DNA of 60,308 nt from NCBI RefSeq assembly GCF_000295095.1, contig NZ_JH806632.1, positions 1 through 60,308 of the forward strand, read 5' to 3'. Of this stretch, positions 33,231 to 58,571 are shown piece by piece. The notes beneath the pieces are model-generated. The model saw nothing but the letters and a program-made list of their open reading frames with translations. It was not told the origin of the DNA and made no database searches. The position numbers were made by a program, and so were the translations under genes. The number at the start of each line of letters is the position of its first letter. Positions within the stretch are counted from its first letter, which is position 1. This stretch comes from Actinomyces timonensis DSM 23838 (GTDB lineage Bacteria; Actinomycetota; Actinomycetes; Actinomycetales; Actinomycetaceae).

Positions 33231-33233
33231 TCT

Positions 33234-33282
33234 GTATCCACAGGCTGGTGCTGGTCGGGGCGTGTTGGCGGGGTTATCCACA
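33234..33282 (+). promoter_or_regulatory. Two DnaA-box-like sequences
   Basis: TTATCCACA at 33274-33282 is a perfect consensus DnaA box; GTATCCACA at 33234-33242 differs at one position. They lie 40 nt apart in the SseB / DUF6318 gap. No dnaA, dnaN or AT-rich unwinding region is nearby, so this is not oriC; a DnaA titration or regulatory role is possible, or chance. Confidence 0.4.
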
Positions 33283-33434
33283 GATCCGCGATGGGGCCTG
33301 GCGCGCGGACGGCGTGGGGCTCTAAGGTGGGGGCCGACGGCGAGGCCGCCGTCACTGGGGCCGACCTGGGGCCTCGATTTCTTCCCCTGGTCCATATCCG
33401 CCCGTCCGCTTCCCGCTTGGAAGGCCCCAGACCC

Positions 33435-35056: not shown

Positions 35057-35167
35057 CCCCCACCACACACCACACCGAACCCGCCACCGGTCTCGATCCT
35101 CATTTCGACCGGTCTCGCCACGAAAGCACACCCCGGTCACGCCCGCAGGCACAAGACCAGAATCTCG

Positions 35168-35189
35168 CCGTGCTGATCGCCCGGTCTCG
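35168..35189 (-). repeat. 22-bp repeat, right inverted copy
   Basis: Read on the minus strand: CGAGACCGGGCGATCAGCAC(GG), one mismatch from the left copies at 33177 and 33199. Shorter CCGGTCTCG fragments occur nearby at about 35087 and 35110. Together they bracket the DUF6318-PKD island. Confidence 0.75.
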
Positions 35190-35223
35190 ATGGGGAGGGG
35201 GGGGAAGAAAGATATCGGTCGGT

Positions 35224-35946: not shown

Positions 35947-36020
35947 GGTGCCTCCTGGGCGGTCGTGGGATGCGGCGCGGCGGGCGCACGGTGGATCGGA
36001 TCAGTCAGTGCGGGCGCGGG

Positions 36021-38605: not shown

Positions 38606-39562
38606 GTGTCCCCACTGGTCGAGTCCCTGCGCCCCGCGCGCCCTCCGCGCCGATCATTGCTCGCGCTCGCCCTGGCCGCCTCCCTGGCGGGCTGCGGCGC
38701 GAGGAGGACGAGCGCGCTCTCACCAGACCCGACGGCGCCCTTCCCCGACTCCTCACCACCCGCTGCCTCCCCCACCCCGTCGGAGACGAACGCCCCGGTC
38801 AGCGCCCCGCCGGAGTCAGTGTCGCCCTCCCCCACTCCGAGCGCCACCGGCGCGCCCACGCGCGACGAGATCGCGGCCCGCTACTCCAGCGCCTCTCCCG
38901 CCTGGTTCGATCTGGAGGGCGAGGGCATCGTGTCGCGCACGCCGTCGTCCGGGGTGTGCCTGACCCTCGACGCCTGCGGAGGCGCCCACGGCTCCGGCGT
39001 CGACGAGGACCTTGTCTCCCTGCTGCTCGACCGCGGGATCCCTTTCACGGCCTTCCTCAACTCGCGGTGGGTCGAGGCCAACCCGGCGACCCTCGACCGC
39101 CTCCTGGCCAGCGGTATCGTGGAGATCGGCAACCATGGGACGGCGCATCTGCCCCTGTCCGTGACCGGGCAGTCCGCCTACGGGATCGCGGGAACCGCCG
39201 ACGCCGGCCAGGTCTACGACGAGATCATGGGCTGCCAGGAGCTCCTGACCAGCCGCACGGGCACCGCGCCGCGCTTCTTCCGGCCGGGCACGGCCCACTG
39301 GGATGACGTGTCCGTGGCCATCGCCAGCGGCCTCGGCGTCGAGGCCGCCGGCTTCTCGATCAACGCCGATGCGGGGGCCACCTTCTCCGCCGCGCAGGTG
39401 TCCTCCGAGCTGCGGCGGGCCGGGGCGGGCGACGTCGTCATCTCGCATATGAACCAGCCCGCGGGCTCGACGGCGGAGGGTTACGCGCAGGCGATCCCGG
39501 CCCTCATGGAGGGCGGGACGGTGTTCCTCACGCTGGGCCAGGCGATCCCCGCGCCGGCCTGA
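38606..39562 (+). CDS. Polysaccharide deacetylase-family lipoprotein
   Basis: A 318-residue lipoprotein (lipobox LAGC, Cys30), Ser/Pro linker, then a NodB-type carbohydrate esterase 4 domain: motif 1 as LTLDACGGAHGSG (a variant of TFDDGP with one Asp), motif 2 GNHGTAH, motif 3 RFFRPGTAHW. Expected to remove acetyl groups from peptidoglycan or another glycan outside the cell. Start is GTG at 38606 just after CATGCT, a possible -10. Sixty nucleotides after the kinase frame; the kinase may regulate it, but that is a guess. Confidence 0.85.
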   Translation: MSPLVESLRPARPPRRSLLALALAASLAGCGARRTSALSPDPTAPFPDSSPPAASPTPSETNAPVSAPPESVSPSPTPSATGAPTRDEIAARYSSASPAWFDLEGEGIVSRTPSSGVCLTLDACGGAHGSGVDEDLVSLLLDRGIPFTAFLNSRWVEANPATLDRLLASGIVEIGNHGTAHLPLSVTGQSAYGIAGTADAGQVYDEIMGCQELLTSRTGTAPRFFRPGTAHWDDVSVAIASGLGVEAAGFSINADAGATFSAAQVSSELRRAGAGDVVISHMNQPAGSTAEGYAQAIPALMEGGTVFLTLGQAIPAPA

Positions 39563-45887: not shown

Positions 45888-46775
45888 TCAGTACGCGCGG
45901 CCGCGGCGGATGCAGTGGTGGTGGCGGCGCGGGCCGCCGGGCTCGCCGTGGGGGCCGTGGCCGTGGCAGTCGCCATGACCGTGACCACCGTGACCACGGT
46001 GGCCGCTCTGGCCATCGGGCCCGCCGCATCCGCCGCGGCCATGCCCGTGCCCGTGTCCACGGCCATGACGATGGCCGTGCTCGCCGGGCCCACCGGGCCC
46101 ACCGTGGGGCCCGGGGAAGCCATGACCGAAACCGTGGCCGAAGCCGTGCTCGCGCATGCGCATGACGTCGGCGAAGCGCTCCTCGCCCAGGCGCTCGCGC
46201 ATGGACTCCAGCTCCTCTTCGCTCACGCCCTGCTCGCCCAGGCGCTGGGAGAGCGGGGCGATGACCTTGTCGAGCAGCTCGGCGAGCCGGGCGGCCTCGT
46301 CCTCGTCGAGCACGGTGAAGGGGCTGGCCGCGCCCGCCTCGATGCTGGTCTCGCGGCCGGCGTCGGTGAGGTGGACGAGCATGACGCGACGGTCCTCGTG
46401 GCTGGGTGCGCGCTCGATGAGGCCCGCGCCCTGGAGCCTGCCGAGCAGCTCGTTGAGGGACTGCTGGCGAATGCCCAGGAGGAAGGCGAGGTCCTTGGTG
46501 GCGATGGGGCTCTGCATCTTCAGGGCGGCTAGGACGCGGCCCTGGCCTCGGCTCGGGTCCCCCAGGGGGCCGTGCTCGGCCCGGCGGGCGGCGCGGTCGC
46601 GCCCCATGAGCCAGACCAGGGCGCGGAACTTGCGGTGCAGCGCGGCATGAATGTCGCCGTCCTCGACGCCGTCGGCACTGCGGGCCTCGCCCGCGTCGGT
46701 GCCCTCGGGGGCCTCGGGATCTCCCAGGGGCTCCTCGAAGGGCTGGTTCTCAGAATCGTTCTGCGTGGGAGTCAT
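45888..46775 (-). CDS. MarR-family regulator with His/Gly-rich tail
   Basis: A 295-residue regulator. The MarR winged helix is central (about residues 45-150): GQGRVLAALKMQSPIATKDLAFLLGIRQQSLNELLGRLQGAGLIER and the wing with HEDRRVMLVHLTDAG. After a helical region comes an 80-residue tail of HG, HGHGRGH and GGPGG repeats that could bind Ni, Zn, Co or Cu. Metal sensing is therefore possible but not shown. ATG at 46775 with AGGAG 6-7 nt upstream. It likely represses its own promoter and possibly the divergent helicase gene. Confidence 0.88.
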   Translation of the reverse strand: MTPTQNDSENQPFEEPLGDPEAPEGTDAGEARSADGVEDGDIHAALHRKFRALVWLMGRDRAARRAEHGPLGDPSRGQGRVLAALKMQSPIATKDLAFLLGIRQQSLNELLGRLQGAGLIERAPSHEDRRVMLVHLTDAGRETSIEAGAASPFTVLDEDEAARLAELLDKVIAPLSQRLGEQGVSEEELESMRERLGEERFADVMRMREHGFGHGFGHGFPGPHGGPGGPGEHGHRHGRGHGHGHGRGGCGGPDGQSGHRGHGGHGHGDCHGHGPHGEPGGPRRHHHCIRRGRAY

Positions 46776-46893
46776 GATGATCTCCTTCTTCCTCTAGGTG
46801 AGTCGTGGGCCCGGTCCGCCTCATATGGGCCGGGCGGGTGGACGCCGGGAGCGGCATCGTCCGTCGCGCTTCGGGCCATCGCCCACCGCATTT

Positions 46894-46964
46894 GACAGGT
46901 GCCTGTCGATCCCGACGACAAGAAATCTACAGGCACCTTCACAATCTTTCAACCGGTACCTGTA
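46894..46964 (-). promoter_or_regulatory. MarR gene promoter with three operator-like palindromes
   Basis: Minus strand: TTGAAA (46947-46952), 17-nt spacer, TAGATT (46924-46929). Three related palindromic sites built on ACAGG/CCTGT halves occur: GACAGGTGCCTGTC (46894-46907), TACAGGCACCTT (46928-46939, next to the -10) and ACCGGTACCTGTA (46952-46964, at the -35). The layout fits autorepression by the MarR protein encoded downstream. Helicase control from the same sites is possible. Confidence 0.65.
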
Positions 46965-47004
46965 TGTCGCGAGTCACATGGGCATTCATGTCAGTGCCCC
47001 GGGC

Positions 47005-47010
47005 TACCGT
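47005..47010 (+). promoter_or_regulatory. -10 hexamer of a leaderless promoter (RecQ-like helicase)
   Basis: TACCGT followed by 6 nt and the ATG at 47017. Confidence 0.5.
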
Positions 47011-47016
47011 GGGCCC

Positions 47017-49365
47017 ATGAGCGCCACAGCCTCGTCCGCAGAGTCATCCGCAGCATCGTCCGCACTGCCCTTGGAGCGGCCCACCGTCCTGCGCGAGCGC
47101 GCGGAGGAGATCCTGCGCGCGCTCGTCGGCAGCCAGTCCGCGCGGCTGCGCGCCGATCAGTGGCGGGCCATCGAGGCGCTGGTGGTCGGACGCCGTCGGG
47201 CCCTCGTGGTGGAGAGGACGGGATGGGGCAAGTCCGCCGTCTACTTCGTGGCCACCATGCTGCTGCGCGAGGGCTGGGGCGGGTGGCGCGAGTCAGACCC
47301 CCTCCCCTTGGCCCGCTCCGGCGAGGGGGCAGGCGGCGCCGGCCCCACGATCATCATCTCCCCGCTGCTGGCCCTCATGCGCGATCAGGTCGCCGCCGCC
47401 GAGCGCGCCGGCATCCGGGCCGTCACCATGAACTCGGCCAACTCCGCCCAGTGGGAGCAGATCGAGTCCGAGATCCGCTCCGGGCGCGCCGATGTCCTCC
47501 TGGTCTCGCCCGAGCGCCTCAACAACCCCGTCTTCCGGGACGAGGTCCTGCCGCACCTGGCGGCCAGCGCGGGCCTCGTCGTCATCGATGAGGCCCACTG
47601 CATCTCGGACTGGGGCCACGATTTCCGGCCGGACTACCGGCGCATCCGCACCCTGCTCGCAGGCCTGCCCACCCTCACCCCCGTCCTGGCGACGACGGCC
47701 ACCGCCAACGAGCGCGTCACCACCGATGTGGCCGAGCAGCTGGCGGGGCGCGCGATGGGCGGGCCCTCCCCCGAGGTGCTCGTCCTGCGCGGGAGCCTCC
47801 AGCGGGATTCCCTCCACCTGGGCGTGGCGCGCCTGGAGGACGCTGCCACCCGGCTGGCCTGGCTCACGGCCTACCTCCAGCGCGCCCAGGGCTCCGGGAT
47901 CGTCTACTGCCTCACCGTCTCCGCCGCGGGCGAGACCGCGCAGGCCCTGCGCGCCGCCGGACTGGAGGTGGCCACCTACACCGGCCAGACCGAGCCCGCC
48001 GAGCGCGAGCGCCTCGAGGCCGATCTCAAGGCCAACCGCGTCAAGGCGCTCGTGGCCACCAGCGCCCTGGGCATGGGCTTCGACAAGCCCGACCTCGGCT
48101 TCGTCATCCACATGGGCGCGCCGGCCTCCCCCGTGGCGTACTACCAGCAGGTGGGGCGCGCGGGGCGCGGCGTCGAGAGGGCGGAGGTGGTCCTGCTGCC
48201 CGGGGCGGAGGATCGCGCGATCTGGGACTGGTTCGGCTCCCAGGGCTTCCCACCGCCCGAGCGGGTCCGCGAGGTGCTCGACGCCCTGGAGGCGGCCGAC
48301 GGCCCCCTGGCGACCGGCGCGCTGGAGACCGTGACGAGCCTGCGGCGCACCCGCCTGGAGTCGATGCTCAAGGTCCTCGACGTCGACGGCGCGGTGCGGC
48401 GGGTGCGGGGCGGCTGGCTCTCCACGGGCGAGCCCTGGGTCTACGACGCCGAGCGCTACGCCCGGGTGGAGGCGGCCAGGAAGGCCGAGCAGGAGGCGAT
48501 GCTCGCCTATGAGCGCCTGCGCGCCCCGGCGTGCCGGATGGCTTTCCTGCGGGCCGCGCTCGACGATCCGGAGATGCCCGAGGGCTGGCGCTGCGGCGCC
48601 TGCGACCTGTGCGGGGGCCTCGACCTGCCCCAGGGGCCGGATGCGGAGCAGGTGGGGGCGGCCCTGGGGTCATTGGCGCGCATCGGGGTGGAGATCACGG
48701 CTCGGCGCCAGTGGCCGGTGGGCATGGATCGGCTGGGGCTCGGCGCGCTGCGGGGCAGGATCCCGCCCGAGCGGCGGGCGGGCACGGGCATCGCCGTCGG
48801 CAGGCTCGATGGACTGGGCATCTCGGCGGCGCTGCGCGCGCTCTTCGCCTCCGGTGAGGACGGGCTCGTCCCTCCTGCGCTGCGAGCCCCCGTCCTGGAG
48901 GCGGTGGACCGCCTGGCTGATCTCGCCTGGGCTGAGCGCGGGGCGGACGGCCCCGAGACGGGCACTGCGGGCCAGGGCGCGTCCAATGATGCCCAGGACG
49001 GCGCGGCGAGCGAGGGAGTCATCGACGCGGTCGTCATCATCGACTCCCGGCGCCATCCGCAGCTGGTTCGGCACCTGGGGGGCGCGGTCGCGCACCGCCT
49101 GGGCGCCGAGCGCCTCGGCGTCATCGCCGCGGGCGGGGAGCCGGGGCGCCATGACGTCAACTCCGCGACCCGCCTGGCGGCGGTGGCCCGCAGCCTCAGC
49201 CTGGACGGATGGGGGCCCGATGCCCTGGAGCGCCTCGATGGCGCCCGCATCGCCCTGGTCGACGACTCGACGGACTCCGGCTGGACCCTCACAGTGGCGG
49301 CCGATCTCCTGCGGCGCTCCGGCGCCGCGGCGGTCCACCCTTTCGTCCTCGCTCAGGAGTCCTGA
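47017..49365 (+). CDS. RecQ-like ATP-dependent DNA helicase fused to a phosphoribosyltransferase-like domain
   Basis: A 782-residue protein. Superfamily 2 helicase motifs are complete: RTGWGKS (67-73), SPLLALMRDQ, DEAHCISDWGHDFRPDYR (191-208), TTATAN, ATSALGMGFDKPDL and QQVGRAGRG. A RecQ zinc-type cluster follows (CRMAFLRAAL... CGACDLCGG). The C-terminal 130 residues (VIDAVVIIDSRRHP... ALVDDSTDSGWTLT) resemble a PRTase fold with the PRPP loop, in place of the HRDC domain. Start ATG at 47017, leaderless. Likely DNA repair; the PRTase-like part may bind a nucleotide. Confidence 0.88.
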   Translation: MSATASSAESSAASSALPLERPTVLRERAEEILRALVGSQSARLRADQWRAIEALVVGRRRALVVERTGWGKSAVYFVATMLLREGWGGWRESDPLPLARSGEGAGGAGPTIIISPLLALMRDQVAAAERAGIRAVTMNSANSAQWEQIESEIRSGRADVLLVSPERLNNPVFRDEVLPHLAASAGLVVIDEAHCISDWGHDFRPDYRRIRTLLAGLPTLTPVLATTATANERVTTDVAEQLAGRAMGGPSPEVLVLRGSLQRDSLHLGVARLEDAATRLAWLTAYLQRAQGSGIVYCLTVSAAGETAQALRAAGLEVATYTGQTEPAERERLEADLKANRVKALVATSALGMGFDKPDLGFVIHMGAPASPVAYYQQVGRAGRGVERAEVVLLPGAEDRAIWDWFGSQGFPPPERVREVLDALEAADGPLATGALETVTSLRRTRLESMLKVLDVDGAVRRVRGGWLSTGEPWVYDAERYARVEAARKAEQEAMLAYERLRAPACRMAFLRAALDDPEMPEGWRCGACDLCGGLDLPQGPDAEQVGAALGSLARIGVEITARRQWPVGMDRLGLGALRGRIPPERRAGTGIAVGRLDGLGISAALRALFASGEDGLVPPALRAPVLEAVDRLADLAWAERGADGPETGTAGQGASNDAQDGAASEGVIDAVVIIDSRRHPQLVRHLGGAVAHRLGAERLGVIAAGGEPGRHDVNSATRLAAVARSLSLDGWGPDALERLDGARIALVDDSTDSGWTLTVAADLLRRSGAAAVHPFVLAQES

Positions 49366-49423
49366 GCCCCCTGGCGGGCAGGCCCGTCTGGCTCAGCGAG
49401 CATGTCCGATTCGGCGGGCCCCC

Positions 49424-51028
49424 TCAGGACCCAGAGGCGGCAGCGCCCTCCGAGGCCTGCTTGAGCGAGCGCCCCACCGGCCCGAGGCCACCGCTTCCCG
49501 CCGTCCCGGGGGCGCCCGCGCCGTCGGCCTCATCCCCAAGGAAGTACCACCAGAAAGGAGCCCCCCAGGCCTGGGGGCGCCCCAGGGCCGCGCCCGTCAC
49601 CTGGGCGATGAGGGCGCTCCGGGCGGCGGCGGTGTCGTCGTGGGAGCCGAACCACCACGGCCCGCCGTCCAGGTCCTCCCCGCCGTAGCCGAGCTCGGTG
49701 ACGGCCACGCGCTTATCCGGGAAGCGCGCGGCCAGGGCGCTCATGACCCGGTCCGCGGCAGTCCCCAGCGGGTGGGACTGCGGGTAGACGGAGATGCCGA
49801 CGACGTCGACGAGGCCCATGAGCTCGCTGCCGGCCAGGGAGGCGGCCACGTTGAACAGGGCGCCGTCGGCCTCCGCCTGGCCGAGCTGGTAGTAGAGGGT
49901 GAGGACGGTGAGCGCGCCGGTGCGCTCCTTCACGGCCCGGGCCGCGCGCGTTGCCCGCCCCACGGGGTCCTCCCCCAGCCAGTCGCCCCCGATCTCGTTG
50001 CCGACCTCCCAGGAGTCCAGGCCCGGCAGGGCAGTCAGCACGGCGTCGACCCGCTCATCGAAGTCCGAGTCGCTCAGGGCGGCCATGCCCTCGGAGTCGC
50101 AGATCTGCCCCATGACGTGGATGCCGGCGCCTTGGAGGGCGTCGGCCGTCTGGCGCCAGGCGGCGAGGGCGGGCGCGCTCACATCGTCGAGGACGAGCCG
50201 CGCCGCGCCCTTTCCCCCGGAGCTGGTGGCGGCGACGACGGCGTCGCGCTGGCCCGCGCTGGGGGCCTCGGTGAGGGTCGCCCCGATGAGGGCGTCCGTT
50301 GGCGCCGCCGAGATGAGCGCGGTGTCGACGGCGATCTGGGCCGTCGAGGCGAGCTCGAGGAGGCGCGCCCCCTGCTCGTCGCCCGCGCCGGAGTCGATCA
50401 CCGTCTGGGTCGTCTCGTGGGCGGCGCGCGCGGCCTCAAGGGCGCTGGCCGCGCTCCCGGCCCGGGCGCCCGCACCGCTCCGGTCCCCCAAAGCGGAGAG
50501 GAGTTCCGCCTGCCGGGCATGCAGGCCCCGGGCGGCCAGGGCGAGGACCTCAGCGCTGCCCTGGCGGGGCAGGTCGGCGATGAGCGCGGAGTAGCCCTGG
50601 GAGGTGGGCCATGACAGGCACAGGGCGCAGTCACGCCCCTGCGGCACATCGACGAGGATCGCCCCATCGGCCTCGTAGAGGGGCCCGATCGCGATGACCT
50701 CGAGGGTCGTGGCATCCAGGAGCGCGTCGTCGTAGCCGTCCTCGCCCCTGCCCGCGGACTGGATGGCCCGCACCCGCTCCAGGGTCAGCGGCTCGCCGTC
50801 GGGGCCGCGGAGGACGAGGGTGATGGGGACGGTCGCGCTGTCGTCGGGACCCTCGCAGGTCATGAGGGCGCCCACGGCGCCGCCCGCGAGAGCCAGGCCT
50901 CCTGCGGCGATGATGGCCCGACGGCGCGTGAGCCATCCCCGCCGCTCCGCCCCAGGAGCGCCGGGCGGGCCCGGGAGGCCGCTCGCGCCGTCGCCCGGGC
51001 CCGTCGGGGCGCTGCCGGCAGGCGTCAT
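49424..51028 (-). CDS. Exported clan GH-A glycoside-hydrolase-like protein
   Basis: A 534-residue protein with a Pro/Gly-rich N-terminus, twin-Arg-like RRRAIIAAGG signal anchor (about 35-57, with a Cys at 58), a beta-rich N-terminal domain and a helical region, then a TIM-barrel part from about 275. WEVGNEIGGD carries the acid/base Glu (345) and VTELGYGGE the nucleophile Glu (445), the clan GH-A layout. It probably trims or degrades the polymer made by this operon, as hydrolases do in other synthase-dependent exopolysaccharide systems. 4-nt overlap with the DUF2334 gene. Last gene of the operon. Confidence 0.78.
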   Translation of the reverse strand: MTPAGSAPTGPGDGASGLPGPPGAPGAERRGWLTRRRAIIAAGGLALAGGAVGALMTCEGPDDSATVPITLVLRGPDGEPLTLERVRAIQSAGRGEDGYDDALLDATTLEVIAIGPLYEADGAILVDVPQGRDCALCLSWPTSQGYSALIADLPRQGSAEVLALAARGLHARQAELLSALGDRSGAGARAGSAASALEAARAAHETTQTVIDSGAGDEQGARLLELASTAQIAVDTALISAAPTDALIGATLTEAPSAGQRDAVVAATSSGGKGAARLVLDDVSAPALAAWRQTADALQGAGIHVMGQICDSEGMAALSDSDFDERVDAVLTALPGLDSWEVGNEIGGDWLGEDPVGRATRAARAVKERTGALTVLTLYYQLGQAEADGALFNVAASLAGSELMGLVDVVGISVYPQSHPLGTAADRVMSALAARFPDKRVAVTELGYGGEDLDGGPWWFGSHDDTAAARSALIAQVTGAALGRPQAWGAPFWWYFLGDEADGAGAPGTAGSGGLGPVGRSLKQASEGAAASGS

Positions 51029-52959
51029 TGAAGGTCCTGGGCCGCCACGAAGGTGTAGCCCTGGCCTTTGATGCCCTCGACGATCGTCTTGAGCTCGTTC
51101 AGCGGGTAGTAGGAGTGGAAGAAGAAGCTCGCCGTGGCGTGCGTCCCCGCGAGGTTGAGGCTGGCGGAGTCGAGGATCTGCTGCGACAGACGCGGCGGGT
51201 GGTTGTTGATGTCCTTCGGCTCGTAGTTGCCCAGGTTCTCCGGCAGCACGTGGGTGCCGTAGGGGTCATTGACCGCGTAGGGGAAGAACTGGCCGATGTA
51301 GTCGTGCGGCCCGCCCGGCGTGCCGGTGAGGGTGCCCGCGTGCATGAGCTCGCGCTCGTAGCGGGTGGAGTAGACCTTGTTGATGCCCTCGTAGCCGCTG
51401 CGGGAGGCCGAGTAGTGGGGGGTCTCGAAGATCTGCGGGGTGGGCAGGCCGACCTTCTTGAAGATCTTGCGGCCGTCCTTCACCCGCTTCTTGGCCCACT
51501 TGGCGCTCGTGCCGGGCAGGTCTCCGCCGATCTGGACCCAGGAGTTGTCCTGGCAGGGCACGACGGGCGCGTCCGGGGAGTTCTCGGCGGAGCACCACGA
51601 GCGGATGAACTCGAAGTCGTCGCTGGACACGCCGTTGTAGGGGTTGTCCAGGTCGCCGAACTGGTGGGTGGTGCCGTGCTGGATGAGGGTGCCGCCCTTG
51701 GCGACGGCGTCCTTGAGGACGGCGACGAGCTCGGGGGTGTCCTGGAGGGTCATGGAGCGCGGGGCGCCGTTGTTGTCGACGCCCTTGGGGTCCTCGTACT
51801 TGGGGTAGACGGCCATCTGGAAGGGCACGTCCTGGGAGTATAGGTAATCGACCATCGCCTGGAGCTCGGCGGGGTCGGTGTCGGGGCCGACGTCCTCGAT
51901 GCGCACGGCGGCCTGGCGGACCTGGGTCGCGCTGGGCTGGAGGGCGTCCAGGACGATGTCAGCGGCGGCGATGTAGCGGTCCTGCTCGCTCATGTAGGTC
52001 ACGGGGACCTCGCCGATGAAGGTCAGGCCGGATGAGGCCACGGCCCACGGGAAGGAGGTCGTGCCGGACTGGGCGACGCTGGCGCACTGGGTGGCGGCGC
52101 CGTCGGCCGAGGAGCACAGGGCCCTGCCCAGCACCGTGACGGCGCCCGCGTTCGTGATGTGGGGGGCGGTGATGCCTCCCTTGTTCAGCTCGTTGCGGCT
52201 GAAGGTCTTGCCGTTGTAATCGATCTGGGTGACGCGGTCGGTGGCGTCGACGTACGAGGTCGCGGCGTCCCAGCCGTACCGGGCGGTGAAGGTGGCGCGG
52301 TCGGCGTCGGTTTTGACGAGCTCCCAGATGTTGAAGCCGGACCACAGGATGGGCACGTTGCCGGTGAGGACGTCGTCGATGAAGGCGCGCGGCAGGGGCT
52401 CGTCGTAGGTGGAGCCGGTGTAGATGACGTTGGTGTAGCGCCCGGCCAGGCCGGCCTGGTAGTCGGCCACCGGCAGGGCGGTCACGAGCCCGGAGTGGCT
52501 GGCCAGGTTGCCCATGGCCATGGCGTAGTACTCGCCGAGCTTGCTCCAGTCCCCGGTGGTGTCGTAGAGGACGAGGGTGGAGGCGGGCCCGGCGTCCTGG
52601 TTGGAGTAGGTGACGGCGCGGTTGGGGACCTCGGGCGGGTTGGCCCGCAGGTCGCGGATCTGGGGCGCGGCCTGCGCGGCGGGGGCGTCGGCAAGGTTGA
52701 CCGCGGCAGCGTCACCGGCCAGGGGCAGGGCCTCGGCCTGGGCGGCGGCGGGAGCGGGGGGAGCCTCGAGCGGGGCGCCCGCCCAGCCGAGGTCGTCGGC
52801 GGGGCTGTCGGCCGCCACCGGGGCGAGGGCCGCGCCGCGCGCGGTCGGGTTGGCGCCGCTGGCGGCCTGGGCGGAGCCGACGAGGCCGAGCGAGGCGCTG
52901 AGCGCCACGAGGGCCGTCAGGACCGCCCGGCGACGGCGCGCGTGGGTCGTCGTTGTCAT
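51025..52959 (-). CDS. Secreted DUF2334 protein (polysaccharide deacetylase-like)
   Basis: A 644-residue exported protein: Tat/Sec-like signal (RRRRAVLTALVALSASLGLVGSAQA), Ala/Pro linker, then a region with VLYDTTGDWSKLGEYYAMAMGN and a DUF2334 barrel (AAVRIEDVGPDTDP, FQMAVYPKY, LIQHGTTHQFGD, FETPHYSASRSG, ATASFFFHSYYPL), where Asp/His positions resemble carbohydrate esterase 4 metal sites. ATG at 52959 is 9 nt after AGGAG; the upstream in-frame ATG at 52968 abuts it. In the operon it would de-N-acetylate the polymer. Confidence 0.83.
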   Translation of the reverse strand: MTTTTHARRRRAVLTALVALSASLGLVGSAQAASGANPTARGAALAPVAADSPADDLGWAGAPLEAPPAPAAAQAEALPLAGDAAAVNLADAPAAQAAPQIRDLRANPPEVPNRAVTYSNQDAGPASTLVLYDTTGDWSKLGEYYAMAMGNLASHSGLVTALPVADYQAGLAGRYTNVIYTGSTYDEPLPRAFIDDVLTGNVPILWSGFNIWELVKTDADRATFTARYGWDAATSYVDATDRVTQIDYNGKTFSRNELNKGGITAPHITNAGAVTVLGRALCSSADGAATQCASVAQSGTTSFPWAVASSGLTFIGEVPVTYMSEQDRYIAAADIVLDALQPSATQVRQAAVRIEDVGPDTDPAELQAMVDYLYSQDVPFQMAVYPKYEDPKGVDNNGAPRSMTLQDTPELVAVLKDAVAKGGTLIQHGTTHQFGDLDNPYNGVSSDDFEFIRSWCSAENSPDAPVVPCQDNSWVQIGGDLPGTSAKWAKKRVKDGRKIFKKVGLPTPQIFETPHYSASRSGYEGINKVYSTRYERELMHAGTLTGTPGGPHDYIGQFFPYAVNDPYGTHVLPENLGNYEPKDINNHPPRLSQQILDSASLNLAGTHATASFFFHSYYPLNELKTIVEGIKGQGYTFVAAQDLQ

Positions 52960-53035
52960 CTGGAGCATCTCCTTATCAGGGTGGGGATCGATCAGGGCGA
53001 GGGGGCAGAAAGAGCAGGGTGGGGGCGGGGCGGGC

Positions 53036-54238
53036 TCAGGCGTGGGCGGGCTCGAAGTCAGGAAGGGGCTCCCCTCTCCCGAACAGGGCGGCGGTGGCCG
53101 CCATGACTCTCTCGCAGGCCCGCCCGTCGCCGTAGGGGTTGGCCGCCTGGGCCATGGCCGCGTAGGCGGCGTCGTCGGTGAGCAGGGTGGTGACGGCGTC
53201 GACGATGCGCTCCTCGTCGGCTCCCACGAGCCTGGCCACGCCGTAGTCGATGGCCTCGGGGCGCTCGGTGCTCTCGCGCATGACGAGCACGGGCTTGGAC
53301 AGCGCGGGGGCCTCCTCCTGGACGCCCCCGGAGTCGGTGAGCACGATGTGGGCCCTGTTCATGAGCGAGCAGAAGGCCCCGTACTCCAGGGGGTCGGTGA
53401 CCACGACGTTGGGCAGTCCCTCGATCCGCGGCAGGAGGGCCTGGCGCACGATCGGGTTGCGGTGGGCGGGAAGGACCATGAGCGCGTCGGGGTGGGCGCG
53501 GGCCAGGCGGGCGATCGCCCGCCCGATCCCCTCCATGGGCTCGCCCCAGGACTCGCGCCGATGCGCGGTCACCAGCACGACCCTGCGGAAGGGGGCCTCG
53601 AGGGCCTCGCGCAGCGCCGGGTCCGCCGGGGGTGTCGGCCTTGTGACGGCCTCCAGCAGGGCGTCGATGACGGTGTTGCCCGTGACCCGTAGGGAGGCGG
53701 GGTCGACGTTCTCACGCAGGAGGTTGTCCCGGCTGGCCGCCGTCGGGCACAGGTGCAGGGAGGTGATCTGCCCGACGAGCTTGCGGTTGGCCTCCTCGGG
53801 GAAGGGCGAGGAGATCGTGCCGGTGCGCAGGCCGGCCTCGAGGTGGAGGACGGGGGTGGAGTGGTAGAAGGCGGCCAGTCCCGCCGCGAAGACCGAGGTG
53901 GTGTCGCCCTGGACGAGGACGGCGTCGCAGGGCCGCTCCTCCAGCGCCCTGCCCACGCCCTCGAGGCACCGGGTGGTGATCTGGGTGAGGGTCTGGCCCG
54001 GGGAGTGGATATCGAGGTCGATATCGGGGGTGATGCCGAAGAAGGCGTTGACCTGGTCGAGCATCTCGCGGTGCTGCCCGGTGACGACGACGACCGGGTC
54101 GAAGCGCTCATCGGCGCGCATCCGGTTGATGAGGGGGGCGACCTTGATGGCCTCGGGCCTCGTGCCGTAGACCAGCATGATCCTCAGGGGCGCGCCCTGC
54201 GTCCGCTGATCGGCGGGTGTCATGGGTTCGGTGGTCAT
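53036..54238 (-). CDS. wecB: UDP-N-acetylglucosamine 2-epimerase (non-hydrolysing)
   Basis: A 400-residue epimerase making UDP-ManNAc. Family motifs: LVYGTRPEAIKVAPLI, TGQHREMLDQV, VQGDTTSVFAAGLAAF, HLEAGLRTG, FPEEANRK, TAHRRESWG, TDSGGVQEEAPAL. A sugar-nucleotide supplier to the GT2 synthase two genes upstream: this suggests ManNAc or a derived sugar in the polymer. About 20 nt after the preceding gene's stop and 76 nt before the DUF2334 gene. Confidence 0.95.
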   Translation of the reverse strand: MTTEPMTPADQRTQGAPLRIMLVYGTRPEAIKVAPLINRMRADERFDPVVVVTGQHREMLDQVNAFFGITPDIDLDIHSPGQTLTQITTRCLEGVGRALEERPCDAVLVQGDTTSVFAAGLAAFYHSTPVLHLEAGLRTGTISSPFPEEANRKLVGQITSLHLCPTAASRDNLLRENVDPASLRVTGNTVIDALLEAVTRPTPPADPALREALEAPFRRVVLVTAHRRESWGEPMEGIGRAIARLARAHPDALMVLPAHRNPIVRQALLPRIEGLPNVVVTDPLEYGAFCSLMNRAHIVLTDSGGVQEEAPALSKPVLVMRESTERPEAIDYGVARLVGADEERIVDAVTTLLTDDAAYAAMAQAANPYGDGRACERVMAATAALFGRGEPLPDFEPAHA

Positions 54239-54258
54239 CGGTGCTCCTCTGTGTCGTG

Positions 54259-54993
54259 TCAGGCGCGTGAGTAGGTGGTCGCGGCGAAGGTGACGATGGC
54301 GTCCTCCGTGTAGGCGCCCACCGGGCCGCTGCGGTAGGGGCTGTCCGAGTCCTCGATGACGCCGAGGTCCTGCCCGTCGGCCGTGACGGTGAAGGAGACG
54401 GCGTCGCCGGTGGTGTCGACGCGCACCTGCGCGAGGTGGGCGATGCCGACCTCGAAGGAGGGCTCATACGCGGAGGCGAGGAAGCGCTGGTTGCCGGGGT
54501 AGGCGGGGTCCTGCTTGGAGACCTCCCAGCCGTTGGGCTTGAGGGCGAGGGCGTAGAAGTGCTCGTTGTCCTGGAAGGACCACATGAGCCAGGCGACCTC
54601 CCATGGGTTGGGCGCCGTTCCCTCTCGCAGTTGCTTCTCCGTGGTCATCATGGAGGTGACGGTCTGCGTGGCCCTGTCGGCGATGGAAGCGGTCGTCGAG
54701 ATGGCAAGGGCGGCGTGCGTGCGCTCGTCCTCGGTGGCCGGGCTGGGGGCCAGGCGCAAGGAGCCGCCCTGGCAGGTGGCGTCGCCGTAGCCGTCGAAGA
54801 GGACCTGCCAGTCATCACAGCCCGTCTCCTGGGTGGAGAAGTAGCGGTACCCGAGCGCGCCCCCTCCCCCGATGAGCGCCACGAGGGCGCCCCCGAGCAC
54901 GAGCCGACGGCGCAGCAGCGCGGACCTCGCGCCATCGTCCGGCGGCTCCGCGGGCGCGGCGCCCCTCTGGGCGGACTGGTCCGGGGCCCTCAT
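54259..54993 (-). CDS. Membrane-anchored sugar-binding-like protein of the exopolysaccharide operon
   Basis: A 244-residue protein with one N-terminal membrane anchor (LVLGGALVALIGGGGALGY, about 32-50) and an extracytoplasmic domain. The latter looks like a concanavalin A-type jelly roll: WLMWSFQDNEHFYALALKPNGWEVSKQDP, VRVDTTGDAVSFTVTADGQDLG and the closing YTEDAIVTFAATTYS, as in LamG/DUF1080-like domains. Possible role: hold or guide the nascent polymer at the membrane. Overlaps the GT2 gene stop by 4 nt. Confidence 0.7.
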   Translation of the reverse strand: MRAPDQSAQRGAAPAEPPDDGARSALLRRRLVLGGALVALIGGGGALGYRYFSTQETGCDDWQVLFDGYGDATCQGGSLRLAPSPATEDERTHAALAISTTASIADRATQTVTSMMTTEKQLREGTAPNPWEVAWLMWSFQDNEHFYALALKPNGWEVSKQDPAYPGNQRFLASAYEPSFEVGIAHLAQVRVDTTGDAVSFTVTADGQDLGVIEDSDSPYRSGPVGAYTEDAIVTFAATTYSRA

Positions 54994-56552
54994 GCGGCCA
55001 CCTCATGATGCTCACGGCGGGCGGGCGGGCGCGGGGATCGCCGCGACTCGGGCGGGACCGACAGGGGGGCGCTCGGCGACGGCGATCCGACCCGCACGAG
55101 CGGCGGCGGGATGCGGAAGCCCTGCGGGACAGCCGCCGCCTCCCTGACCCGCGCCGCCTCCGCGACCACCGCGGTCTTCTCCAGCGGCGCGATGGGCCCC
55201 ATGGGCTCCGTGGACTTCATAGGCTCTGCTGGCTCCGCCGAGTCTGCCGACTCTGCTGGATCCTCCGGCTCCTCTGCCTCCCGCGCGGTCTTCGCCCACC
55301 CGGTGCGTCCCGCGATCTCGCGCAGCAGCGCCCGCCACCCGAAGAGCGCTGGGAGGAGCCCGTAGAGCACGAAGAGATGCGCGTAGGCGAGCGCCTTCAA
55401 CGGGCCGAGCCCCTCGGAGCGCTCGATCCTCCAGTACAGGACGCCGAAGACGAGGCCCGGGCCGAAGGCGAGGAGGTAGGCGCCCAGCAGCCACCACCAG
55501 GTCTGGCTGTGCCCGAGGACCGCCTTGCACACGACGACGAGCACGGTGATCCCGAAGGAGGCCATGAGCAGCGAGGCCGCCAGGAGCACGTAGGGCGTGA
55601 GGATCTGCCACGTGCTGTCCGCCCTGGCCAGGCCGCGCTGCTCGCGAGCGGCGCGACCGAGCAGGTTGAGGGACTGGATGTTGCCCTGGAACCAGCGCGT
55701 GCGCTGGCGCAGGAGCCTCCTGAGGCTCGTGACGCCCTGCTGGTGGACCGCCGCGGTGGGGCGGAAGTCATTGACCCACCTGGTGCCGTTGAGACGGACG
55801 CCGAGGTCGAAGTCCTCAGTGAGCGACTTGGTCCAGGGCCGCTCCCCCAGCGCGGTCAGGGCATCGAGGCGGGCGAACTGCGCGTTGCCGCCCATGCCGA
55901 CGCTGTGGAGATGGCGCCGCCCCCTCTGGAAGACCTCCGTGAAGATGACGAACTCCATGTCCTGCATGCGGGCGAGCAAGGAGGAGAAGCGGTTGTTGAT
56001 GCGCACACCGAACTGCACGGCGCCGATGCGCCGGTTGCCGAAGGCGCGGCGGGCCTCGTCGATGGCCTGCGACTCGAGGCGGCCGTCGGCGTCGACGACC
56101 CCGACCACCACATCAGTGCGCGGATCGCCGCCCCACTGGTCGCGCACGCGCCTCAGGGCGTCATTGAGGGCCTCGCCCTTGCCCAGGCGGGCGCGCGGGG
56201 GGACTCGGCGCATGACGCTCACCCGCGGGTCGGGGATCGCTCTGACGACGTCGGCTGTGCCGTCGTCGGAACCGTCGTCGATGACGAGGATGCGCAGCTT
56301 GTCATCGGGGATGTCGAGGAGCCGTCCGACGCTCGCGCCGATGACCCCGGCCTCATTGAGGCACGGCATGAGGATGACGACGAGGATGTCCTTGGCGCGG
56401 GAGCTGCCGCCGCGCCGCGGCCGCTCGATCCGCGGAGCCCGCCGGGAGGCGATGAGGAGGACGAGCACGTAGAGCAGGCCCGCCCCGATCATGATCACCG
56501 CGCCCCAGCGGCCGACCAGCTCTACTGGGTCACCATCGCCGACGCCGATCAT
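54990..56552 (-). CDS. Processive family 2 glycosyltransferase (exopolysaccharide synthase)
   Basis: A 520-residue membrane GT2. N-terminal membrane segment, then the GT-A domain with IDDGSDDG (91-98), DAD (154-156), acceptor motif TED (245-247) and the processive-synthase motif QRTRWFQGN (283-291, Q-x-x-R-W), followed by about three or four C-terminal membrane helices (305-450). Same plan as PgaC/NodC/HasA-like synthases. The C-terminal 110 residues are disordered with repeated ES/SAEP units. Four-nt overlaps on both sides. It would polymerise and extrude a hexosamine-type polymer. Confidence 0.9.
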   Translation of the reverse strand: MIGVGDGDPVELVGRWGAVIMIGAGLLYVLVLLIASRRAPRIERPRRGGSSRAKDILVVILMPCLNEAGVIGASVGRLLDIPDDKLRILVIDDGSDDGTADVVRAIPDPRVSVMRRVPPRARLGKGEALNDALRRVRDQWGGDPRTDVVVGVVDADGRLESQAIDEARRAFGNRRIGAVQFGVRINNRFSSLLARMQDMEFVIFTEVFQRGRRHLHSVGMGGNAQFARLDALTALGERPWTKSLTEDFDLGVRLNGTRWVNDFRPTAAVHQQGVTSLRRLLRQRTRWFQGNIQSLNLLGRAAREQRGLARADSTWQILTPYVLLAASLLMASFGITVLVVVCKAVLGHSQTWWWLLGAYLLAFGPGLVFGVLYWRIERSEGLGPLKALAYAHLFVLYGLLPALFGWRALLREIAGRTGWAKTAREAEEPEDPAESADSAEPAEPMKSTEPMGPIAPLEKTAVVAEAARVREAAAVPQGFRIPPPLVRVGSPSPSAPLSVPPESRRSPRPPARREHHEVAA

Positions 56553-56776
56553 GCGCCCCTCCTGCGACCCGGCCCCCGGTACCAGCCCAGGAGCGTCCGC
56601 CTGAGGGCGCCGGTCAGGTTGATCCACAGCCAGGCGAGGGCGATCACGGCGAAGAAGAACCCCGCGAGGAGGGAGAGGATATGGGCGATGGTCCCAGCGA
56701 CAGCGAGAATCCGCGCCACGGAGCCCGGCCCGGGCGGCCATGAGGAATGCGCAAGAATCAGGGAGCAATTGCTCAT
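56549..56776 (-). CDS. Small membrane protein before the exopolysaccharide synthase
   Basis: About 75 residues with two adjacent hydrophobic segments (VARILAVAGTIAHILSLLAGFFFAVIALAWLWIN in two helices) and a basic C-terminal tail. It overlaps the GT2 start by 4 nt (ATGA), so it is coupled to it; small partner subunits of GT2 synthases (PgaD-like) have this size and shape. The start is uncertain: the chosen ATG at 56776 has only a weak ribosome-binding site, and a start at 56950 is possible in the same frame. Confidence 0.6.
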   Translation of the reverse strand: MSNCSLILAHSSWPPGPGSVARILAVAGTIAHILSLLAGFFFAVIALAWLWINLTGALRRTLLGWYRGPGRRRGA

Positions 56777-57169
56777 CGCACCGTCATTTCGACTCAAGGG
56801 ATCAGGGTGGAACCACGATGATGATTGTTCACGGAGGAACGCATCCGGATGGGGTCCAGAAACGCTATGAACAGAAGATAACGATTTGATATAGCAGGAG
56901 AACACTGTAGAAACGCACAACTCACAAGGGTCTTGACTGTAGTATTTCACATGTCCGTTGAGGTATCAGTCGTGGTCACCAGCACGTTCGGATCTCATCC
57001 ACAGAATTCGTTGACGTCTATCACGTTCACAGCATTCTTCGATCGCGGCCATCAACGGCGCCCGGAAAATGCGTCAACAGCCGCCGCTCCAAGGGAGTCG
57101 ATCGGCACCGATGGACAAAAGGATGAGGCCCATCAACCTCCGTCCAAGAATCCCCACCCCGCGACAACA
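56777..57169. other. Low-GC intergenic region upstream of the exopolysaccharide operon
   Basis: About 390 nt, clearly richer in A/T than the flanks (for example around 56860-57060). It must contain the promoter of the minus-strand operon; the best candidate, TTGTGA-17-TGTTCT near 56900-56930, is weak. I see no convincing gene: the open frames lack ribosome-binding sites and family resemblance. The composition suggests a regulator-bound region or acquired DNA. Confidence 0.4.
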
Positions 57170-57208
57170 ATCCGCGCCGAGCGCCCATGAATGGGGCTCG
57201 GCGCGGAT
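57170..57208 (-). terminator. Terminator of hisD
   Basis: Stem ATCCGCGCCGAGC (57170-57182) with GCTCGGCGCGGAT (57196-57208), 13 bp perfect plus GCCC/GGGC inside, 14 nt downstream of the hisD stop. Confidence 0.75.
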
Positions 57209-57221
57209 GGAGAGGACCGGC

Positions 57222-58571
57222 TCAGCCGCGATCGCGGAGACGGGCTCCGACAGCCTCGGCGTGGGCGGGCAGATCCTCCGCCTGGGCCAGCGCCGCGAGA
57301 GGGCTCGCCATGGCGCCCAGAGCCTCAGCGCTGTACTCGATCATCTGGACCGGCTTGAGGTAGGCCATGACGCTGAGCCCGGCGGCGAAACGCGCGGTGC
57401 CCCCCGTGGGCAGGACGTGGTTGGAGCCGGCGAGGTAGTCGCCGAGCGGCACGGGGCTGAAGGGGCCGACGAACACCGCCCCGGCGTTGCGGATGCGGCG
57501 CGCCACCTCGGCGGCCTCCTCGGTCTGGATCTCGAGGTGCTCGGCGGCGTAGGCATCAGCCACGGCGATGCCCTGCTCCAGGTCCCGCACGAGCACCACT
57601 CCTGATTGGGCCCCGCCCAGGGCGGTGGCGGCACGATCCCGGTGCCGCGTCGCCGCGAGGCGGCGCTCGAGCGCGGCGTCGACGGCCTCGGCGAGCGCGG
57701 GGCTGTCGGTGATGAGCACTGAGCCGGCGTGAGGGTCGTGCTCGGCCTGGGAGAGCAGGTCGGCGGCGACGTATTCAGGATCGGCTGAGGCGTCGGCGAG
57801 GATGGCGATCTCCGTGGGCCCGGCCTCAGCGTCGATGCCGACGTCGCCGAGCACGGCGCGCTTGGCCGCGGCGACGTACACATTGCCGGGACCGGCGATG
57901 ACGTCGACGGGCTCGCACAGCAGGCCACCCGCGCTCGTCTCCTCATCGGCCCCTGCCTCGGCCCGGGCGCCGTAGGCGAGCATGGCGATGGCCTGGGCGC
58001 CGCCAGCGGCGTGGACCTCGGTGACGCCGAGCAGGCCGCAGGCCGCCAGGATCGTCGGATGGGGAAGCCCACCGTGCTCGGCCTGGGGAGGAGAGGCCAG
58101 GACGATGCTCTCCACCCCGGCGACCTGCGCCGCCACGACGTTCATGACGACCGAGCTCGGGTAGACGGCGAGACCCCCTGGGACGTAGAGGCCGACCCTG
58201 CGCACGGGCACCCAGCGCTGGGTGATGATCCCGCCGTCAATGATGCGCGTGACCCGCTCGGTGGGCATCTGGGCGGCGTGGCCCGCGCGGTTGTGAGCGA
58301 TCGAGAGCTCCAGGGCCTCGCGAACGGCGGGGTCGAGAGCATCGACGGCGCGCTCGATGGCCTCGCGCGGGACGCGCAGGCGCTCGGGACGGACGCCGTC
58401 GAAGCGCTCCGCCAGGTCCCGCAGGGCGGCCGCGCCGCGGGCCTTCACGTCACTGATGATCGGCGCCACGGTCTCCAGGGCCGCAGCGACGTCCAGCGCG
58501 GCTCGCGGCAGGCGCTCGGCGAGCTGGCGGGGGGTGAGGTCGGTGTCGCGCAGGTCGATGCGAGTCAGCAT
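57222..58571 (-). CDS. hisD: Histidinol dehydrogenase
   Basis: Final two oxidations of histidine synthesis, NAD- and Zn-dependent. The 449-residue protein has VGLYVPGGLAVYPSSVVMN, AGPGNVYVAAAKR, the zinc/catalytic region LLSQAEHDPHAGS, and YAAEHLEIQT. ATG at 58571 lies 6 nt after TAACCT, so leaderless. It stands alone here: the exopolysaccharide operon, helicase, MarR and antiporter genes lie between it and hisC. Confidence 0.96.
   Translation of the reverse strand: MLTRIDLRDTDLTPRQLAERLPRAALDVAAALETVAPIISDVKARGAAALRDLAERFDGVRPERLRVPREAIERAVDALDPAVREALELSIAHNRAGHAAQMPTERVTRIIDGGIITQRWVPVRRVGLYVPGGLAVYPSSVVMNVVAAQVAGVESIVLASPPQAEHGGLPHPTILAACGLLGVTEVHAAGGAQAIAMLAYGARAEAGADEETSAGGLLCEPVDVIAGPGNVYVAAAKRAVLGDVGIDAEAGPTEIAILADASADPEYVAADLLSQAEHDPHAGSVLITDSPALAEAVDAALERRLAATRHRDRAATALGGAQSGVVLVRDLEQGIAVADAYAAEHLEIQTEEAAEVARRIRNAGAVFVGPFSPVPLGDYLAGSNHVLPTGGTARFAAGLSVMAYLKPVQMIEYSAEALGAMASPLAALAQAEDLPAHAEAVGARLRDRG

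What the first reader, a model, noticed from the sequence alone, without database searches (positions are those of the whole stretch)
49424..56776. Candidate synthase-dependent exopolysaccharide operon with an unusual gene set
Six minus-strand genes, mostly with 4-nt overlaps: a small membrane protein, a processive GT2 synthase with Q-x-x-R-W, an anchored jelly-roll-like protein, a UDP-GlcNAc 2-epimerase, a DUF2334 deacetylase-like protein and a clan GH-A hydrolase-like protein. Gene for gene this parallels Pga/Pel-type systems (synthase, partner, precursor enzyme, deacetylase, hydrolase), but the DUF2334 and GH proteins and the epimerase do not match the classical sets. A ManNAc-containing or partly deacetylated hexosamine polymer is inferred. 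It may serve biofilm growth or host adhesion.
Basis: partly seen in the sequence, partly recalled or inferred. Interest (0 to 1): 0.7.

Follow-up and report, generated by a model that had tools for sequence, protein, structure and literature searches.

The report
Widespread actinobacterial mannosamine-type exopolysaccharide operon
A six-gene block in this Actinomyces-like genome looks like a machine that builds and secretes a sugar coat probably made of N-acetylmannosamine, and five of its genes recur together in many actinobacteria in a combination that matches none of the well-studied biofilm-sugar systems it was compared with.

Summary
In detail: six minus-strand genes at 49424-56776 (A small membrane protein, B GT2 synthase, C anchored jelly-roll-like, D UDP-GlcNAc 2-epimerase, E DUF2334, F GH-like), 4-nt overlaps at three of five junctions. 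It is conserved. In 49 same-genus genomes B and C occur in the same 30, E in 29 of those and in none of the other 19; six genomes without it have a near-empty hisD-recQ site. A C-profile scan gave 74 loci; of 60 with enough flank 56 hold B, 56 E, 50 D. The family of A lies directly before B in 11 of 11 profile hits outside Actinomyces. One Solirubrobacterales contig fuses B to C. So the core is A-B-C-(D)-E; F also occurs without it (8 of 19). Best reading: a synthase-dependent, WecB-fed exopolysaccharide, probably an N-acetylmannosamine polymer trimmed by E and cut by F. It works like Pga/Ica and Listeria Pss but fails membership tests for both.

The parts
56549..56776 (-). A: small single-pass membrane protein (75 aa), conserved accessory subunit
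   Evidence: One hydrophobic stretch, residues 30-48. By tblastn only 3 of 34 relatives showed it, but a small ORF with one strongly hydrophobic stretch that aligns with A lies just before B in 27 of 31 relatives L031-L061 (not found by that rule in L035, L053, L054, L061). A profile of these finds 11 hits at E<=0.1 outside Actinomyces in L065-L138, all 11 directly upstream of B; one of them, L084, is the contig of a training row.
54990..56552 (-). B: GT2 synthase of the processive kind (520 aa)
   Evidence: GT2 families; D93, D154, D156, E246-D247 and Q283-R-x-R-W287 invariant in 31 aligned sequences of many genera, T245 invariant within the closer set of 22. Profile hits in the PDB: best 6yv7 'Glycosyl transferase, family 2' (55 bits) and chondroitin synthase (44), then cellulose synthase along about 325 positions (37) and hyaluronan synthase 1 (32). 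Of three E. coli synthases PgaC is closest (109 bits; BcsA 33, NfrB 22).
54259..54993 (-). C: N-terminally anchored jelly-roll-like (LamG/DUF1080-type) protein (244 aa)
   Evidence: One hydrophobic stretch at 31-49; PF06439 in 25 of 33 aligned sequences, not the window's own; motif PNPWEVxW...ALKPNGWELSKQDPAYPG largely conserved; fused to GT2 in L130. PDB profile hits only weak (levanase, E 0.044).
53036..54238 (-). D: non-hydrolysing UDP-GlcNAc 2-epimerase (400 aa)
   Evidence: TIGR00236 442.6 bits; 53% identical to E. coli WecB over 370 aa; K32 stands where WecB has K15. A second, more distant wecB match (253 bits) lies elsewhere in the genome.
51025..52968 (-). E: exported-looking DUF2334 protein (647 aa), predicted metal-dependent deacetylase
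   Evidence: PF10096 163.1 bits over residues 352-632; hydrophobic N-terminal stretch 15-33; E358-D359 and H435 invariant and H431 at least 90% in 32 aligned sequences of many genera. No confident match to a solved structure by sequence.
49424..51028 (-). F: exported-looking glycoside-hydrolase-like protein (534 aa)
   Evidence: Invariant R35-R36 before a hydrophobic stretch; W340-E-x-G-N-E345 invariant and T444-E445-L-G-Y at least 90% in 24 aligned sequences; GH53 model weakly in 16 of 24. Present in 30 of 30 B-positive and 8 of 19 B-negative same-genus genomes.

Best explanation
A synthase-dependent exopolysaccharide system. D turns UDP-GlcNAc into UDP-ManNAc. B, held in the membrane with the small protein A and the anchored jelly-roll protein C, polymerises that sugar and pushes the chain out; C receives or guides the chain on the outer face. 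E removes N-acetyl groups from the emerging polymer, giving a partly cationic mannosamine-type chain that can stick to the cell and to surfaces. In Actinomyces, F cuts the chain (length control, release or turnover). Shown here: gene content, conservation, co-occurrence, one fusion, intact motifs. Inferred: UDP-ManNAc as the donor used by B, a polymer as product, the roles of A and C, deacetylation by E, cutting by F, any biofilm role.
For: B and C occur in the same 30 of 49 same-genus genomes, E in 29 of the 30 and 0 of the other 19. Of 60 loci with enough flank from a C-only scan, 56 hold B, 56 E, 50 D, 48 B-C-D-E. Reverse test: DUF2334 genes over 160 bits in 11 sampled genomes besides the own one; B stands beside them in 9 and C in 9 of 11; two of the 11 lie at or near contig ends, and 4 of the 11 loci overlap loci of the C scan, so the two tests are not fully independent. 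B-C fusion in L130. Family of A directly before B in 11 of 11 profile hits outside Actinomyces. B carries the processive-synthase residues and is nearest PgaC among three E. coli synthases. D is WecB-like with the catalytic lysine kept. E keeps an E-D ... H-x3-H arrangement like the D-D or D-x-D plus H-x3-H of CE4, CE18 and CE21 enzymes (passages of PMC7229062 and PMC12022489; E residues). Precedent: Listeria PssC, about 30% identical to IcaA and HmsR, serves a ManNAc-based polymer (passages of PMC4125290, PMC10172500), and the deacetylase PssB is needed for it (first part of PMC6307706); in E. coli WecB with NfrB is proposed to make a ManNAc-containing glycan (passages of PMC8669472).
Against: No biochemistry. 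D is missing beside C in 10 of 60 well-flanked loci, 7 of which keep B, C and E; the rest of those genomes was not searched, so the donor could be another sugar there. The own genome has a second wecB. The comparison of E with CE4 proteins is not convincing (probability 12%, E 0.0023), E has no match among eight E. coli proteins that include PgaB, and no solved structure matches E, C or F with confidence. The best-scoring solved relatives of B are not cellulose or hyaluronan synthases. The only sugar analysis of an Actinomyces exopolysaccharide that I read (A. oris K20, passages of PMC3557718) reports neutral sugars with mannose at 77.5%.
Confidence: 0.62

Rival explanations
1. Same machine, different sugar: B polymerises GlcNAc (a PNAG-like chain) or a mixed chain, and D serves a branch, a second residue or another pathway.
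For: B is nearest to PgaC among the three E. coli synthases compared and matches the PgaC/IcaA model (81 bits); D is absent next to B-C-E in 7 loci that keep the other three; a second wecB exists in the own genome.
Against: D lies between C and E in the operon and is kept in 50 of 60 well-flanked loci. Listeria PssC is also IcaA-like yet its operon makes a ManNAc backbone (passages of PMC4125290 and PMC10172500). The PgaC/IcaA score is far under the cut-off of 422.3.
Confidence: 0.25
2. B makes a glycolipid or a short oligosaccharide rather than a polymer, and C, E and F act on a wall glycan.
For: The closest NCBIfam model is an XrtP-associated glycosyltransferase (266.8 bits, cut-off 520), whose product I do not know. 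Weak matches to non-processive GT2 models also occur, and the best PDB relative is a plain 'Glycosyl transferase, family 2' (6yv7).
Against: Invariant Q-x-x-R-W and E-D and alignment along cellulose synthase over about 325 positions; fusion to the C domain behind a hydrophobic stretch; E and F look exported.
Confidence: 0.1
3. F is not part of the pathway; it is a hisD-linked hydrolase that happens to sit downstream.
For: F alone follows hisD in 7 of 18 fetched B-negative loci and is in 8 of 19 B-negative genomes; at 100 bits or more only 1 of 43 well-flanked loci outside Actinomyces carries it. F is in two pieces in two B-positive genomes.
Against: Present in 30 of 30 B-positive same-genus genomes; Fisher p 2.6e-6, not corrected for kinship. 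In the Geodermatophilaceae locus L121 it again lies directly after E (306 bits). The E/F overlap is 4 nt here.
Confidence: 0.35

Closest known systems
Listeria monocytogenes Pss (pssA-E; beta-1,4-ManNAc backbone with Gal branches)
   Same: IcaA-like GT2, a deacetylase needed for cell-bound polymer, a ManNAc product (passages of PMC4125290, PMC10172500, PMC4817252; first part of PMC6307706).
   Different: No BcsB-like protein recognised (C shows none), no GGDEF domain found in this genome, a wecB inside the operon, and E matches DUF2334 and not the CE4 model. Listeria sequences themselves were not compared; whether PssB also matches DUF2334 is not known to me.
PNAG systems (pgaABCD, icaADBC)
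   Same: Synthase (nearest PgaC), a small membrane protein beside it, a predicted deacetylase; in pgaB also a hydrolase activity (annotation).
   Different: Synthase far under the TIGR03937 cut-off, no CE4 match, A and E not similar to PgaD or PgaB, plus a wecB and a jelly-roll-like partner.
E. coli NGR glycan (NfrB, NfrA, WecB)
   Same: GT2 synthase that depends on WecB; ManNAc polymer proposed (passages of PMC8669472).
   Different: B is farther from NfrB (22 bits) than from PgaC (109); c-di-GMP-controlled there; no deacetylase annotated in nfrB-nfrA-ybcH of K-12.
Galactosaminogalactan cluster and bacterial Agd3 (CE18) operons; Pel (PelA, CE21)
   Same: Glycosyltransferase, deacetylase and hydrolase genes grouped together (PMC7229062 section 13 and passages, PMC12022489 passages).
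   Different: E finds neither Agd3 nor PelA among solved structures by sequence. Spacing from D359 to H431 is 72, against over 120 between the motifs in Agd3, though close to the 70 between D530 and H600 in PelA. F shows no GH114 match in Pfam. The clusters' UDP-glucose 4-epimerase is recalled; here it is a 2-epimerase.

Membership tests
Synthase-dependent exopolysaccharide systems (general) | Membrane GT2 with D, D, (T)ED and Q-x-x-R-W able to polymerise and extrude (motif list recalled) | tested here: met
   D93, D154, D156, E246-D247 and Q283-R-x-R-W287 invariant in 31 aligned sequences; hydrophobic stretches at 17-35, 322-340, 354-372 and 387-405. Activity not tested.
Synthase-dependent exopolysaccharide systems (general) | No flippase or polymerase of the Wzx/Wzy kind in the locus | tested here: met
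   None of the six genes matches such a family. The rest of the genome was not searched for them.
PNAG (Pga/Ica) | Synthase over the PgaC/IcaA equivalog cut-off | tested here: not met
   81 bits against 422.3.
PNAG (Pga/Ica) | CE4 deacetylase (PF01522) | tested here: not met
   E matches only PF10096; profile comparison with CE4 proteins gives probability 12%.
PNAG (Pga/Ica) | PgaD/IcaD-type small subunit | tested here: not met
   A shows no BLASTP match to E. coli PgaD at E<=10; similar in place only. IcaD not compared.
Pel | PelF, PelG, PelD and PelA-type proteins | tested here: not met
   None of the six genes matches such families in Pfam or NCBIfam; no PelA structure among the hits of E. 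Only the six genes were tested.
Listeria Pss | c-di-GMP receptor (GGDEF protein) controlling synthesis | tested here: not met
   No GGDEF match in the own genome.
Listeria Pss | BcsB-like partner | tested here: inconclusive
   C shows no significant match to E. coli BcsB (best E 0.12); Listeria PssD itself was not available.
Listeria Pss | beta-1,4-ManNAc polymer | not testable with these tools
   Needs chemistry.
E. coli NGR | NfrB-type synthase | tested here: not met
   NfrB 22 bits, PgaC 109 bits with the same profile.
E. coli NGR | Non-hydrolysing UDP-GlcNAc 2-epimerase | tested here: met
   53% identity to WecB, TIGR00236 over cut-off, catalytic lysine kept.
CE18 (Agd3) and CE21 (PelA) deacetylases | Sequence relation to a solved member | tested here: not met
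   Neither appears in PDB sequence searches with two E profiles at E<=1. A shared fold is not excluded.
DUF2334 (PF10096) | Score over gathering cut-off | tested here: met
   163.1 against 26 bits.
3-keto-disaccharide hydrolase/DUF1080 jelly-roll (PF06439), for C | Match to the model | tested here: inconclusive
   25 of 33 aligned sequences match at E<=0.01; the window protein itself does not.
Clan GH-A glycoside hydrolase, for F | Barrel with acid/base after N-E and a nucleophile Glu (recalled) | tested here: inconclusive

The most novel reading that the evidence does not exclude
A separate class of exopolysaccharide machine, found in many Actinomycetota, with a five-gene core (small subunit, PgaC-like synthase, jelly-roll synthase partner, WecB, DUF2334) that makes a partly deacetylated, cationic mannosamine polymer, in this genome without c-di-GMP control. 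The DUF2334 proteins would be a new carbohydrate esterase family and C a new kind of extrusion partner for a GT2 synthase.
Probability: 0.4. Interest if true: 0.75.

Novelty: new variant of a known kind. Interest (0 to 1): 0.57.

Why it matters
Oral and soil actinobacteria carry surface glycans whose genes are often unknown. This gives one small, testable gene set, with loci in Actinomyces oris, naeslundii, johnsonii and israelii and in Kocuria, Corynebacterium, Arthrobacter and Streptomyces species. In the library searched, no paper holds both DUF2334 and exopolysaccharide and one holds DUF2334 at all. It would give a likely function to the long DUF2334 proteins, to an unnamed jelly-roll-like family and to an unnoticed small membrane protein, and point to a natural mannosamine-type polymer with enzymes that may modify and cut it.

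Tried and rejected
Searches of solved structures gave nothing firm for C, E or F. Comparison of E with CE4 (NodB) proteins: a first attempt used unoriented loci and is void; the corrected one aligns the P-H-Y motif of E with the P-P-Y motif of CE4, but at probability 12%, so I do not count it as proof. Alignment of D with WecB and the second wecB copy failed (the script did not find the second copy's frame); the lysine was checked instead. Membership of PNAG, Pel, Pss and NGR was considered and rejected on the tests listed. A phylum sample with the C profile found 4 of 396 genomes, own one included, but only 7 first-look candidates per genome were scored there, so I do not use it as a frequency. 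wecB copies in 39 relatives fall into a high-scoring group (about 430-466 bits) and a low one (about 243-288); high-scoring copies also lie outside the operon in some genomes, for example G009, G013 and G021, so a high score does not by itself mark a dedicated copy. Literature, listings only unless said: none of the 10 listed of 26 holds XrtP; 3 papers, 2 listed. Actinoplanes clusters in PMC13390465 (passages) are described as Wzx/Wzy or GtrA types and the text holds no 'epimerase'. No Rfam match in the window at gathering score; no promoter-like site in 49000-57300 by the simple scan.


Full report
What is there. Three of five junctions overlap by 4 nt; the C/D and D/E gaps are 20 and 67 nt. 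A hisD-like ORF lies upstream and a RecQ-like ORF converges from downstream (names recalled from the look of the sequences). B is a GT2 protein, D a WecB-type epimerase well over its curated cut-off, E a DUF2334 protein; A, C and F match no family at E<=0.1.

Is it a unit? I searched 99 genomes with B. Orthologues at 49% identity or more are in 30 of 49 same-genus genomes (own one included), in one other genus of the family (G051) and in one other family of the order (G074). Of 34 loci fetched around B-like genes, 31 have B-C-D in this order; E is in 29 of the 31 (not L040 and L061, the latter a short contig) and F in 29 of the 31 (not L055 and L061). In three loci (L040, L047, L050) hisD lies between D and the next operon gene. 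The other three loci hold only a 33-35% B paralogue without C, E or F, one of them with a D-like match on the other strand. B and C overlap by exactly 4 nt in 25 of 31 (start codons chosen by script).

Presence and absence. In the 49 same-genus genomes C is in 30, the same 30 as B; E is in 29 of these and in none of the other 19 (G028 lacks it). F is in all 30 and in 8 of the 19 without B. I fetched the hisD neighbourhood of 18 of the 19 genomes without B; the nineteenth, G002, has no hisD match. Six have hisD and recQ 19-121 bp apart (a near-empty site), seven have F right after hisD, five have neither pattern. So B, C and E come and go together while F is looser. Fisher tests (E against B p 1.1e-12, F against B p 2.6e-6) ignore kinship. 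D was not scored over all 49.

Beyond the genus. A scan of one genome per species with the C profile gave 74 loci with record titles. The nearest are Actinomyces gaoshouyii and A. denticolens; the window's own species was not determined and its record may be left out of that collection. Profiles of B, D, E and F were run on these loci. In the count (thresholds B 200, C 100, D 150, E 100, F 100 bits) 14 loci with short flanks were set aside (B in 10, D in 10, E in 9 of them). Of the 60 left, 56 have B, 56 E, 50 D, 55 B-C-E, 48 B-C-D-E. Of the 43 of these outside Actinomyces, 39 have B, 40 E, 33 D, 32 B-C-D-E, 1 F. Four well-flanked loci lack B at that threshold: L117, L127, L128 and L137 (the last has a 51-bit piece). 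L127 (Burkholderiales) and L128 (Elusimicrobiota) carry the C domain without B or E. Caveats: the named Actinomyces loci are partly the same contigs as the unnamed ones (for instance L101 and L035); one of the 43, L084, is the contig of a row of the profile (L055); several of the 43 are close kin (Kocuria, Streptomyces), so these are counts of loci, not of events; and the scan rests on two conserved peptides of C.

Reverse test. A search of 296 genomes of the class with the DUF2334 model found matches over cut-off in 51. Matches over 160 bits are in the own genome and 11 others. Around those 11, B stands nearby in 9 and C in 9; L176 and L185, without B, lie at or near a contig end, and L184 has B and two E genes but no C. 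Four of these 11 loci overlap loci of the C scan, so seven are new. The weaker DUF2334 matches (81 bits and less) were not examined and may be other enzymes.

The small protein A is real. tblastn found it in only three close relatives, but 27 of 31 relatives have, just before B, a small ORF with one strongly hydrophobic stretch that aligns with A. A profile from these, run over 30,874 small ORFs, gives 11 hits at E<=0.1 outside Actinomyces in L065-L138, and all 11 end within -60 to +120 nt of the start of the B match; one of the 11 (L084) is a training contig. L035, missed by the rule, is found by the profile on its twin contig L101. In L130 a weaker A-like ORF (E 0.24) ends at the start of the fused protein described next with the ATGA overlap.

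Fusion. In L130, a Solirubrobacterales contig from a metagenome, one frame of 1078 aa holds a GT2 domain (best stretch 432-663) and, at its end, the C domain. This is one contig and could be an assembly peculiarity, but it fits the 4-nt overlap of B and C.

What the parts look like. B: D93, D154, D156, E246-D247 and Q283-R-x-R-W287 are invariant in 31 aligned sequences. In the PDB the best profile scores are 6yv7 'Glycosyl transferase, family 2' (55 bits) and chondroitin synthase (44); cellulose synthase follows along about 325 positions (37 bits) and hyaluronan synthase 1 along about 220 (32 bits). Against E. coli K-12 proteins fetched as yardsticks, PgaC scores 109, BcsA 33, NfrB 22 bits; the profiles of C, E and F match none of the eight E. 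coli proteins, PgaB and BcsB among them. C: one hydrophobic stretch and a domain that matches the DUF1080-type jelly-roll model in 25 of 33 aligned sequences, with invariant Trp, Glu and Asp residues; whether it binds, guides or cuts the chain is open. D: 53% identical to WecB; the lysine whose change inactivates WecB (K15, passages of PMC8669472) has its counterpart in K32. E: E358-D359 and H435 invariant, H431 at least 90% in 32 aligned sequences, an arrangement like the base/metal pair and HxxxH described for CE4, CE18 and CE21 (passages of PMC7229062 and PMC12022489); but the profile comparison with CE4 proteins is not convincing, so deacetylation is a prediction. F: R-R before a hydrophobic stretch, a conserved N-E and a T-E-L, weak GH53 matches. 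Of the seven F genes right after hisD in genomes without B, six keep both motifs by a simple pattern.

Mechanism. Most likely D supplies UDP-ManNAc, B with A and C polymerises and extrudes, E deacetylates on the outer face, and F cuts in Actinomyces. Comparable steps are described for Listeria Pss, where PssC is about 30% identical to IcaA and HmsR over some 300 residues, the product is a beta-1,4-ManNAc chain with galactose, and the deacetylase PssB is needed (passages of PMC4125290, PMC10172500 and PMC4817252, first part of PMC6307706), and for E. coli NGR, which depends on WecB and NfrB (passages of PMC8669472). Unlike those, no GGDEF domain was found in this genome, so c-di-GMP control is unlikely here.

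Against my reading. D is missing beside B-C-E in seven loci that keep the other three, the own genome has a second wecB, and the only sugar analysis of an Actinomyces exopolysaccharide that I read (A. oris K20, passages of PMC3557718) found mainly mannose among neutral sugars. Nothing here measures a polymer.

Novelty. No paper in the searched library holds both DUF2334 and exopolysaccharide, and one holds DUF2334 at all. A survey of synthase-dependent operons (PMC7112194, passages only) mentions Actinobacteria for Pel, and the words epimerase, Actinomyces and Streptomyces do not occur in its held main text. Bacterial Agd3-type operons with glycosyltransferase, deacetylase and hydrolase genes have been described, in Actinobacteria too (PMC7229062 section 13); E does not match Agd3 by sequence. 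The library holds open-licence papers only, so prior description elsewhere is possible. I class it as a new variant of a known kind.

Noticed in passing
window 38939-39346 (+): A polysaccharide deacetylase domain (PF01522, 69.9 bits) lies in the same window, about 10 kb from the operon; its gene and role were not studied.
   Followed up: no
window 46798-49365 (+): The converging RecQ-like ORF ends in a stretch that looks by eye like a phosphoribosyltransferase (ALVDDSTDSGWT...); not tested.
   Followed up: no
window 45888-46775 (-): An ORF that looks MarR-like by eye has a long His/Gly-rich tail (HGFGHGFGHGF...), perhaps metal-binding; not tested.
   Followed up: no
L192 (G018), about 5120-6456: hisD appears in two pieces in two frames in this same-genus genome; F follows directly.
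   Followed up: no
L052 (G012) and L058 (G046): F is in two pieces in these two genomes while B, C and E were found in one piece, again showing F as the least constrained part.
   Followed up: partly
L130, 7352-8645: The Solirubrobacterales GT2-C fusion also carries a long N-terminal part that by eye resembles a VWA-type domain; no Pfam match at E<=0.1.
   Followed up: partly
L180, L182, L184: Three class members carry two DUF2334 genes in tandem beside one GT2 synthase.
   Followed up: no
L086 (Kocuria rosea contig): Two complete B-C-D-E sets stand in tandem within 12 kb.
   Followed up: no
window 33001-36000: G+C drops to about 0.65 against 0.72 on either side, with a GC-skew change.
   Followed up: no
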